Shown here one piece after another: positions 8,336 to 44,797 of a stretch of 64,000 nt of DNA. Numbering within the stretch: position 1 is the first letter of the stretch; every line of letters begins with the position of its first letter. Origin of the DNA: Sipunculus nudus (Eukaryota; Annelida; Sipuncula; Golfingiida; Sipunculidae); contig CM049307.1 of the NCBI GenBank assembly GCA_026874595.1, positions 63,580,370 to 63,644,369 on the forward strand, given 5' to 3'. The position numbers were made by a program, and so were the translations under genes. The notes below the pieces were generated by a model. That model did not search any database. It saw only the letters and a list, made by a program, of their open reading frames with translations, and was not told the DNA's origin.

Positions 8336-9420
8336 TCAAGACCCAAACAGACCTATAATCAAAGACAGAAACGACAATACCACAAAACACGACAGATATG
8401 ACCCGATAACAATAGCAGAAATCATGACGGAGACAACTCCAATAACCATATCAGAAAAATAGCGCAGAAACGATCCCAATAATACTAGCAGGAATCTCGA
8501 CAGGACGACCCTTATAATAATAGAAGAAACCATAACACAGACGATCATGATAACAATAACAAAACACTTGATAGTCAAGACCCGATTACAATAGCAGAAA
8601 CAAGACAGACACGACCCGATAACAATAGCAGAAACACGACAGACACGACCCCATAACAAAAGCAGAAACACGACAGACACGACCCGATTACAATAGCAGA
8701 AATCATGACAGACACGACCCGATAACAATAGCAGAAACACGACAGACACGACCCGATAACAATAGCAGAAACACGACAGACACGACCCGATAACAATAGC
8801 AGAAACACGACAGACACGACCCGATAACAATAGCAGAAACACGACAGACACGACCCGATAACAATAGCAGAAACACGACAGACAGGTATCCTGACAGAGA
8901 CGACCCCGATAACAATAGCAGATATCCTGACAGAGACGACCCCGATAACAATAGCAGATATCCTGACAGAGACGACCCCGATAACAATAGCAGATATCCT
9001 GACAGAGACGACCCCGATAACAATAGCAGATATCGTGACAGAGACGACCCCGACAACAATAGCAGATATCCTGACAGAGGCGACCCCGATAACAATAGCA
9101 GATATCCTGACAGAGACGACCCCGATAACAATAGCAGATATCCTGACAGAGACGACCCCGATAACAATAGCAGATATCCTGACATAACATCATCCAGCAA
9201 TGGCAGAAATAACGACAGTGATGACTCTCATCAAGATGACGGGTAGGGCAAGGACAGGAGAGTAAACATCCAATAACATGAACAATGACAACTGCTTTAA
9301 CCCTTATAACAACGACAGTTCAAATAATTATGACAGACAGGACTCGAATAATGACATATACAATAACAGAGACGTCAAGTTACAGAGACTGTTCTGATAA
9401 CAGTTACGGAAATGAATTAT
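8336..9420. repeat. Minisatellite B: adjacent 34-bp and 36-bp unit arrays
   Basis: Two related tandem arrays sit side by side. From about 8581 to 8885 the unit is 34 bp (ACCCGATAACAATAGCAG plus AAACACGACAGACACG; starts at 8718 and 8752). From about 8886 to 9185 it is 36 bp (ACCCCGATAACAATAGCAG plus ATATCCTGACAGAGACG; starts at 8941 and 8977). Degenerate units extend left to about 8340 and right to about 9420. The minus strand is open for 285 codons (8336-9193) and a second frame for 165 codons (8703-9200), because the unit has no stop there and 36 is divisible by three. The 34-bp part rotates through frames, which argues against real coding. Confidence 0.93.
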
Positions 9421-44358: not shown

Positions 44359-44362
44359 GTAT

Positions 44363-44519
44363 TGTTACGAAGACAATTTATTTGAAGGGAAAATTCTTGG
44401 CCCATCCAAGTTTCGAACCCATAATGGTAGCGCACAAGTCCGGCGTACCAACCGCTTCGCTAGCAAAGCAAGCTTCCCTAGCGAGACCGTTCGGTCTGCT
44501 TTTATGTCACCCCGTAACA
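44363..44519 (-). repeat. TRIM 3' LTR
   Basis: 157-bp copy of the LTR, about 85% identical to the 5' LTR, preceded on the minus strand by the purine-rich AAGAGGGGTG. The A-box is unchanged, whereas the B-box has decayed (GGTTCGAAACT). Confidence 0.88.
44409..44462 (-). promoter_or_regulatory. Partly decayed tRNA-like promoter in the 3' LTR
   Basis: A-box TAGCGAAGCGG (plus 44452-44462) is intact. The B-box position (plus 44409-44419) reads GGTTCGAAACT, two mismatches to consensus. The spacing is again 43 nt. Conservation of both positions in both LTRs shows that the motif belonged to the LTR when the element inserted. Confidence 0.65.
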
Positions 44520-44531
44520 CACCCCTCTTAA
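44520..44531 (-). promoter_or_regulatory. Polypurine tract of the TRIM
   Basis: On the minus strand AAGAGGGGTG directly precedes the TGTTACG start of the 3' LTR, the position where plus-strand DNA synthesis is primed in LTR elements. Two pyrimidines (TTT just upstream and the T in GGTG) make it imperfect. Confidence 0.65.
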
Positions 44532-44616
44532 AAGCGTTCTGCTATCAGAACAAGACTAATTATCCCAGGAGTCAAACTTAGGTGAGCCTATTCCCTGGTC
44601 CACAAAGTTAACTGTC

Positions 44617-44634
44617 ATCCCGGACGAGCCCCCA
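44617..44634 (-). promoter_or_regulatory. Primer-binding site complementary to tRNA-Pro
   Basis: The minus strand reads TGGGGGCTCGTCCGGGAT, three bases after the 5' LTR. It is the exact 18-nt complement of the 3' end of animal tRNA-Pro including CCA (plus strand ATCCCGGACGAGCCCCCA). A reverse transcriptase would start minus-strand DNA synthesis here. A perfect 18-nt match in such an old element is strong support for the LTR-retrotransposon reading. Confidence 0.9.
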
Positions 44635-44637
44635 TTT

Positions 44638-44793
44638 TGTTACGAAGACAATATACTGAGAGGAAAATTCTTGGCCGATCCGGGATTCGAACCCATATCG
44701 ATGGCGCACAAGTCCGGCCTACCAACCGCTTCGCTAGCAAAGAAAGTTTCACTAGCGAGACAGTTCTGTCCGTTTTTGTGTCACCCCGTAACA
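44638..44793 (-). repeat. TRIM 5' LTR
   Basis: 156-bp long terminal repeat, upstream in the element's own (minus) direction. It carries a tRNA-like internal promoter (A-box and B-box) rather than only an ordinary Pol II LTR layout. It ends CGTAACA immediately before the AAA spacer and the primer-binding site. Confidence 0.88.
44683..44736 (-). promoter_or_regulatory. tRNA-like Pol III promoter (A-box, B-box) in the 5' LTR
   Basis: A-box TAGCGAAGCGG (plus 44726-44736) fits TRGYNNARNNG exactly. B-box GGTTCGAATCC (plus 44683-44693) fits GGTTCGANNCC exactly. The two starts are 43 nt apart, the spacing found in a tRNA gene. The sequence between them (GTTGGTAGGCCGGACTTGTG and onward) also reads like a D-loop plus anticodon-arm region. 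The 7 bases before the A-box do not pair with the bases after the T-arm, so it is a tRNA-like promoter, not a functional tRNA gene. Confidence 0.75.
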
Positions 44794-44797
44794 GTAT

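What the first reader, a model, noticed from the sequence alone, without database searches (positions are those of the whole stretch)
44359..44797. A 431-bp TRIM whose LTRs carry a tRNA-like Pol III promoter
Seen directly: two TG...CA terminal repeats, a GTAT target duplication, an exact 18-nt tRNA-Pro primer-binding site and a polypurine tract. Inside each LTR lie A-box and B-box positions 43 nt apart (both exact in the 5' LTR). Known: TRIM elements lack coding sequence and depend on other LTR elements; Cassandra TRIMs of plants and ferns carry a 5S rRNA-type Pol III promoter in their LTRs. Inferred: this would be an animal counterpart using a tRNA-derived promoter, a hybrid of SINE-type transcription and LTR-type replication. 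I am not aware of a described family of this kind in this kind of animal, but I cannot search.
Basis: partly seen in the sequence, partly recalled or inferred. Interest (0 to 1): 0.88.

Follow-up and report, generated by a model that had tools for sequence, protein, structure and literature searches.

The report
Mini-retrotransposon with tRNA-like LTR promoter
A tiny parasitic DNA element that carries a tRNA-gene-like switch in each of its ends is real and present in many copies in this animal genome; its kind (called Helenus) was described in 2024, but its broken copies here preserve unusually clear traces of how it is copied and which larger element probably copies it.

Summary
Window 44363-44793, minus strand, is a two-LTR, non-coding element with a GTAT duplication, an exact 18-nt tRNA-Pro primer-binding site (PBS), a polypurine tract, and A and B boxes 43 nt apart in the LTR. 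It belongs to a large family: 1,896 exact LTR starts in its genome, 639 directly after a polypurine tract. Added here: (1) a T-run follows the B box in 115 of 126 LTRs and poly(A) signals are nearly absent, so each LTR looks like a complete Pol III unit; (2) many copies fuse the PBS to the LTR's own tRNA-like T-arm, inverted; 10 of 34 such loci have a 4-bp duplication round the unit (0.55 expected): recurrent misplaced plus-strand transfers; (3) a few copies contain reverse-transcribed tRNA-Pro; (4) a chimera with matched Helenus LTRs carries part of a tRNA-Pro-primed, Gmr1-order Gypsy element, the likeliest helper. Pol III use is untested, the host is unidentified, and 16 of 40 loci have a PBS that fits tRNA-Pro over only about 12 nt.

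The parts
44359..44362 (.). target-site duplication GTAT, one copy
   Evidence: sequence; also found by the end search (ATAC on the minus strand)
44363..44519 (-). 3' LTR, 157 nt, TGTTACGG...CGTAACA
44390..44393 (-). T-run (TTTT) of the 3' LTR, possible Pol III terminator
   Evidence: sequence; T-run at this place in 115 of 126 LTRs
44409..44419 (-). decayed B box of the 3' LTR (GGTTCGAAACT)
44452..44462 (-). A box of the 3' LTR (TAGCGAAGCGG)
44499..44506 (-). TATA-like CATAAAAG of the 3' LTR
   Evidence: CATAAAA at this place in 104 of 126 LTRs
44520..44529 (-). polypurine tract AAGAGGGGTG
44520..44637 (-). internal region, 118 nt, no coding sequence
44617..44634 (-). primer-binding site, 18 nt, exact to the 3' end of tRNA-Pro with CCA
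   Evidence: tRNA-Pro genes of this genome
44638..44793 (-). 5' LTR, 156 nt
44664..44667 (-). T-run (TTTT) of the 5' LTR
   Evidence: sequence
44683..44693 (-). B box GGTTCGAATCC of the 5' LTR; with the next bases it gives ATCCCGGA, which can pair with the PBS end TCCGGGAT
44726..44736 (-). A box TAGCGAAGCGG of the 5' LTR
44794..44797 (.). target-site duplication GTAT, other copy

Best explanation
It is an old copy of a Helenus-type TRIM, a non-coding LTR retrotransposon moved in trans by a tRNA-Pro-primed Gypsy element. Shown: two-LTR structure, PBS, PPT, 4-bp duplications, high copy number, A/B boxes and T-run in the LTR; copies in which tRNA-Pro was itself reverse-transcribed; a chimera with a Gmr1-order Gypsy (X) that has a matched pair of Helenus LTRs. 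Inferred: RNA starts near LTR position 45, set by the A/B boxes and perhaps the TATA-like CATAAAAG; it must read through the T-run of the 5' LTR and end at the T-run of the 3' LTR, so that R runs from about 45 to 130 and the T-run does the job of a poly(A) signal. Reverse transcription starts on tRNA-Pro with the enzymes of X or a relative. The plus-strand strong-stop DNA copies 18 nt of the primer up to m1A58; its 3' end TCCGGGAT normally pairs with the PBS copy, but sometimes pairs with ATCCCGGA in the tRNA-like part of an LTR, which turns synthesis round and gives the recurrent inverted products.
For: Structure and copies. Boxes: 67 of 126 LTRs with both at the right spacing against 0 of 2,520 shuffles; T-run at 127-130 in 115 of 126 (shuffles 223 of 2,520); T-run window ranks 3rd of 154 in conservation; AATAAA or ATTAAA in 4 of 126. 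Primer: of 52 hits of LTR end plus exact PBS with a base other than G after it, by my own sorting: 7 Gypsy LTRs, 15 internal regions with changes, 30 rearranged; 17 of the 30 run into antisense LTR at the T-arm, 3 into a longer tRNA-Pro copy. Of 34 distinct T-arm loci, 22 have LTR-type ends on both sides in the stretch held, and 10 have a 4-bp duplication round the unit (2 of the 10 are ATAT) against 0.55 expected by base composition. Rfam's tRNA family reaches its gathering score on the tRNA-Pro copy in L052. Helper: in L063/L062 two Helenus LTRs spanning 4,974 bp are 94.3% alike, nearer to each other than to any of 44 other LTRs, with tRNA-Pro cDNA, X LTR end, X gag, integrase and RT pieces between them; X LTR plus PBS also joins antisense Helenus LTR in L134, L135, L138, L140 and Helenus internal region in L030.
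Against: No RNA or Pol III data. 68 of 126 LTRs have another TTTT at 53-56, just before the A box. The T-run inside the 5' LTR should stop most Pol III transcripts early. The TATA-like box fits Pol II as well. Box conservation (0.94-0.95) is only a little above the rest of the LTR (0.91). Only 8 of 40 loci have the exact 18-nt PBS; 16 of 40 (18 with two that the test missed) fit tRNA-Pro over about 12 nt and then read AACG or similar, which routine copying of 18 nt of primer would not preserve; unexplained. A second tRNA-Pro Gypsy (with a MYND finger) shares LTR ends, PBS and 4-bp duplications too, so X is not the only candidate. The flanks of the X chimera match in 3 of 4 bases only. In 3 of 8 simple palindromes the arms are no closer than other LTRs. 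24 of 34 T-arm loci show no duplication, 12 of them because no pair of ends could be tested.
Confidence: 0.72

Rival explanations
1. Ordinary Pol II TRIM: the genomic RNA is made by Pol II from the TATA-like CATAAAAG, and the tRNA-like part is a leftover of a SINE that once inserted in the LTR.
For: CATAAAA at 14-20 in 104 of 126 LTRs; T-run in the 5' LTR and often before the A box works against Pol III; Rfam's tRNA model does not match the LTR.
Against: Poly(A) signals in only 4 of 126 LTRs; both boxes at their spacing in 67 of 126; variation within the B box is highest at its two free positions; boxes kept across the families of Kojima 2024.
Confidence: 0.27
2. Tandem tRNA-derived SINEs that only look like an LTR element.
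For: The LTR unit does contain a tRNA-like A/B-box region.
Against: PBS, PPT and internal region shared by the fetched copies, 4-bp duplications round the whole unit, 639 of 1,896 LTR starts right after a PPT, TG...CA ends, no SINE tail.
Confidence: 0.02
3. The inverted PBS/T-arm copies and the X chimeras arose by DNA rearrangement or nested insertion after integration, not during reverse transcription.
For: Copies are old, arrays and segmental duplicates exist (L067/L068, L089/L094), in 3 of 8 palindromes the arms are not specially alike, and 24 of 34 loci show no duplication, 12 of them untestable.
Against: The same junction, PBS nucleotide 18 to LTR position 115, recurs; 10 of 34 loci have a 4-bp duplication round the unit against 0.55 expected; 5 of 8 palindromes have arms nearer to each other than to at least 40 of 44 other LTRs; long tRNA-Pro copies carry CCA, which the five tRNA-Pro genes read here do not encode.
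Confidence: 0.15

Closest known systems
Helenus (TRIMp3), Kojima 2024, PMC10886601
   Same: Non-autonomous two-LTR element within the published 311-1263 bp range, tRNA-derived A/B boxes in the LTR, PBS and PPT, 4-bp duplications, tRNA-Pro among the bivalve primers, Gypsy helper proposed, tandem arrays reported for one family.
   Different: Kojima found no complementarity between the tRNA-like part and the PBS; here there are 8 nt, and they are the recurrent site of inverted products. No T-run, tRNA-Pro cDNA or helper chimera is mentioned in the sections I read. Family-level identity could not be tested because the Repbase sequences are not held.
Cassandra TRIM of plants and ferns
   Same: TRIM with a Pol III promoter inside the LTR.
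   Different: 5S rRNA-type promoter, other hosts, 565-860 bp (from PMC10886601).
biv-TRIM of bivalves, PMC6934838
   Same: Non-coding TRIM with solo LTRs and tandem arrays.
   Different: Repeats of 202-218 bp, internal 77-80 bp, PPT mostly GGGGAGA, no clear PBS.
Gmr1-clade Gypsy elements
   Same: The proposed helper X has an integrase C-terminal match before RT in one frame, the order reported for Gmr1 (PMC8220671 and PMC2774666, passages only).
   Different: Clade membership of X was not tested by a tree.

Membership tests
TRIM | short non-coding element with two LTRs, PBS, PPT and target duplication | tested here: met
Helenus / TRIMp3 | tRNA-derived sequence with box A (TRGCY..YGG) and box B (GGTTC) in the LTR | tested here: met
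Helenus / TRIMp3 | 4-bp duplications in animals | tested here: met
   26 of 40 loci with 4 bp or more, 15 of them not (AT)n
Helenus / TRIMp3 | primer tRNA shared with a Gypsy element of the same genome | tested here: met
   tRNA-Pro PBS in two Gypsy families, X and the MYND family
Helenus / TRIMp3 | active Pol III promoter | not testable with these tools
   no RNA data; Kojima also leaves it open for Helenus
Helenus / TRIMp3 | sequence similarity to a named Helenus family | not tested
Cassandra | 5S rRNA-derived LTR promoter | tested here: not met
   Rfam scans list no 5S match; boxes are of tRNA type
SINE | single unit with 3' tail, no PBS or PPT | tested here: not met
biv-TRIM | 202-218 bp repeats, GGGGAGA PPT, no PBS | tested here: not met

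The most novel reading that the evidence does not exclude
In this family the tRNA-like part of the LTR is not only a promoter: it is a second landing site for plus-strand strong-stop DNA. Because the primer tRNA and the LTR share a T-arm sequence (ATCCCGGA), the cDNA end that stops at m1A58 of tRNA-Pro repeatedly turns back on an LTR, and integrase inserts the inverted products; the same step joins the TRIM to its helper Gypsy. This would be a cost, or a source of new forms, peculiar to elements with tRNA promoters, and it makes the unknown helper of a TRIMp3 traceable from genome sequence alone.
Probability: 0.6. Interest if true: 0.55.

Novelty: new member of a known kind. Interest (0 to 1): 0.4.

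Why it matters
Who moves TRIMs with Pol III promoters, and whether Pol III really makes their RNA, is open: Kojima calls Cassandra the only validated case and infers helpers mainly from likeness at the PBS. Here chimeric copies and copied primer tRNA point to the primer (tRNA-Pro) and to a specific class of helper, and the anatomy gives a sharp prediction for RNA ends (about LTR 45 and 130). The same fossil junctions can be sought in every other Helenus host.

Tried and rejected
SINE dimer: rejected. Full tRNA gene in the LTR: Rfam and ARAGORN find none. Host identity: of 10 strong COX1 hits I looked at the surroundings of two (C60, C123), both bacterial; the other eight were not opened; an eleventh is a weak chromosomal fragment. 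Autonomous element sharing LTR or internal sequence with the TRIM beyond PBS and LTR ends: none seen among the loci fetched; no dedicated search was made. Same element in viral contigs: one exact pattern, 0 matches. Arm identity as proof of one-molecule snapback: a first measure with gaps counted was uninformative; without gaps 5 of 8 fit, 3 do not. Papers on this strand-transfer product: one term search, four general papers, listing only; papers with the word TRIMp3: of four listed only Kojima 2024 is on this subject.

Full report
OBSERVATION. The element lies on the minus strand at 44363-44793 (431 bp). Read in its sense direction it is 5' LTR (156 nt), AAA, an 18-nt site exact to the 3' end of tRNA-Pro, a non-coding stretch, a purine tract and a 3' LTR (157 nt), flanked by GTAT. 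The LTRs are 86% identical, so the insertion is old. A and B boxes are exact in the 5' LTR and start 43 nt apart; the B box of the 3' LTR has decayed.

FAMILY. The window lies in a 1.43-Gb genome. The 439-bp query gave 47 matches with only 40 of 3,152 candidates scored. I fetched the 40 places that hold them (39 others and this one). In 39 of 40 a TRIM LTR comes first and LTR and internal region alternate; the exception, L030, begins with the LTR end of another element, X, joined through the PBS to TRIM internal region. 7 of 40 hold three or four LTRs in tandem and 26 of 40 have a duplication of 4 bp or more at the ends, 15 of these not simple (AT)n. Exact 22-nt LTR starts number 1,896 (reversed control 0); 639 of them follow GAGGG within 4 nt, that is a purine tract, where intact two-LTR elements would give one in two. 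So a large part of the copies are or were two-LTR elements; the rest should be solo or damaged LTRs, which I did not sort.

WHAT IS KNOWN. Kojima 2024 (PMC10886601; abstract, Results, Discussion, tables and legends read) described TRIMs with tRNA-derived LTR sequences as Helenus, 51 families in pteriomorph bivalves among others, 311-1263 bp, 4-bp duplications in animals, tRNA-Pro among the bivalve primers, Gypsy as likely helper, Pol III use inferred. The present family meets each feature that I could test. biv-TRIM (PMC6934838; abstract, first part of Results and Discussion read) differs in lengths, purine tract and lack of a clear PBS. I could not compare letters with Repbase, nor name the host, so I cannot say whether this very family is listed.

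PROMOTER ANATOMY. I used 126 distinct LTRs (84 from the full-length loci and 45 from PBS/junction loci, 3 repeats dropped; LTRs not aligned from end to end were left out). The A box TRGYNNARYGG is intact in 98, the B box GGTTCGANNC in 90, both in 68, both at the right spacing in 67, against 0 of 2,520 shuffles. A T-run follows at 127-130 in 115 of 126 (shuffles 223 of 2,520) and is among the best kept windows (rank 3 of 154), next to variable positions 124-126. TTTT occurs in 2 of 126 between A box and T-run, in 3 of 126 further downstream, but in 68 of 126 at 53-56 before the A box. Poly(A) signals are seen in 4 of 126; a TATA-like CATAAAA at 14-20 in 104 of 126. My reading: each LTR is a complete Pol III unit; a genomic RNA that starts near 45 in the 5' LTR, passes the first T-run and stops at the second would have the terminal repeat R that LTR replication needs. 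This is inference. A Pol II start from the TATA-like box is the main rival.

PRIMER FOSSILS. To see what follows the PBS I took all 52 exact hits of LTR end plus 18-nt PBS followed by a base other than G, so ordinary copies with G are left out by design. Fifty of 52 were seen in fetched loci; C6:64299745 and C16:31864093 were judged by their matched letters, which equal those of the MYND Gypsy. Sorted by eye: 7 begin in a Gypsy LTR, 15 run on into internal region with changes or gaps, 30 are rearranged. Of the 30, 17 (15 loci after merging duplicates) run from PBS nucleotide 18 into antisense LTR at position 115, 3 into LTR sense strand, 3 into a longer tRNA-Pro copy, 2 into a later part of the internal region, 2 into other antisense joins (one of these, L113, starts in another LTR), 3 into sequence of X. 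A search with one such junction gave 20 places spanning it, duplicates included, and a 21-nt motif search found more: of 11 newly fetched loci 3 were tRNA-Pro genes and 8 were junctions. PBS end TCCGGGAT and LTR ATCCCGGA are complementary, and tRNA-Pro and LTR share this T-arm sequence.

Of 34 distinct T-arm loci, 12 have no pair of LTR-type ends in the stretch that I hold; among the other 22, 10 have an exact 4-bp duplication round the unit (two of them ATAT), where base composition predicts 0.55 (118 end pairs tested). In 5 of 8 simple palindromes the arms are nearer to each other than to at least 40 of 44 other LTRs; in 3 they are not. So the products were most likely made during reverse transcription, partly within one molecule and partly between molecules.

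A RESULT THAT DOES NOT FIT. Only 8 of 40 full-length loci have the exact 18-nt PBS. In 16 of 40 (18 with L041 and L043, which the test missed) the site fits tRNA-Pro over about 12 nt and then reads AACG or similar before TGAC; the rest carry other changes. If each round copied 18 nt of the primer into the PBS, such a class should not persist. Either its PBS is inherited from the RNA, or copying stops early, or it uses another tRNA. I leave this open.

COPIED PRIMER. In L072, L125 and L052 the PBS runs on into antisense tRNA-Pro for tens of nt, with the CCA that the five tRNA-Pro genes read here do not encode (ARAGORN called two of the five, the other three, L132, L133 and L137, were judged by eye). 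In L072 and L125, and in a shorter copy in L147, the base opposite position 58 is changed, in L052 and L145 it is not; the genes read have A58. That position carries m1A in tRNAs (recalled). Three of five is suggestive, not proof.

HELPER. Two Gypsy families with the tRNA-Pro PBS were followed (a third, L106, was only seen). One has LTRs TGTAACGG...GTAACA, 4-bp duplications (CATA, TAAG), RT, RNase H and integrase domains and a MYND finger. The other, X, has many copies (40 scored of 1,710 candidates) and an integrase C-terminal match before RT in one frame, the order reported for Gmr1 (PMC8220671, passages). In the loci examined X, and not the MYND family, is joined to the TRIM: X LTR plus PBS fused to antisense TRIM LTR in L134, L135, L138 and L140 (two of the four were missed by the stricter test, in which 23 of 27 classified junctions have the TRIM's own LTR on the PBS side), X LTR plus PBS fused to TRIM internal region in L030, TRIM LTR plus PBS fused to X in L073, L084 and L116, and a 4,974-bp unit in L063/L062 with TRIM LTR, PBS, 66 nt of tRNA-Pro, X LTR end, X PBS, X gag, integrase and RT pieces, then PBS, TRIM internal region and TRIM LTR. 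Its two LTRs are 94.3% alike and no other LTR of 44 is nearer to either; its flanks agree in 3 of 4 bases; Pfam support for its integrase piece is weak (E 0.002, below the cut-off) and clear for RT (E 1.7e-10). The simplest reading is that TRIM and X RNA were reverse-transcribed in the same particle. X is therefore my first choice as helper; the MYND family is not excluded.

VERDICT. A real, abundant, well-formed element of a kind described in 2024. The new part is not the kind but the fossil record of its replication, above all the recurrent use of the LTR's tRNA-like T-arm as a misplaced strand-transfer site.

Noticed in passing
G000 contigs C60 and C123 (opened); C61, C62, C66, C72, C74, C75, C89 (hits only): The assembly holds bacterial contigs, possibly symbionts or contaminants: C60 has a cytochrome oxidase operon, C123 nucleoside-metabolism genes; seven further contigs give COX1 hits of nearly the same score and frame length as C60, two of them in C89, which is at least 3.2 Mb. 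No mitochondrial COX1 was recognised.
   Followed up: no
L130 (C16:31865300-31868300), L077, L078, L083: A tRNA-Pro-primed Gypsy family encodes a MYND zinc finger between gag and RT (Pfam E 4.7e-11); its LTR occurs with and without an insert of about 1 kb, and in L103 the sequence goes on with GTAAG after TTTGCAG.
   Followed up: partly
L009-L048, PBS position: 16 of 40 full-length loci have a PBS that fits tRNA-Pro over about 12 nt and then reads AACG or similar, a second PBS class.
   Followed up: partly
window 8336-9319: Tandem repeat readable in three minus-strand frames as repeated protein-like motifs; looks like a minisatellite, not a gene.
   Followed up: no
G000:C2:77016226-80226992: Nine listed LTR starts share the same GAGGGTATA flank, as if one insertion was multiplied by local duplication.
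   Followed up: no
G000:C14:19081324-19319681: Cluster of sixteen matches to the tRNA-Pro 3' part, many spaced about 3.6 kb; of two fetched, one is an intact gene and one only a 3' fragment.
   Followed up: partly
L065/L066 (C1:7856978-7857063) and L109: Repeated units of LTR 3' part plus PBS (about LTR 109-156 plus PBS), a second kind of PBS slip, sense to sense.
   Followed up: no
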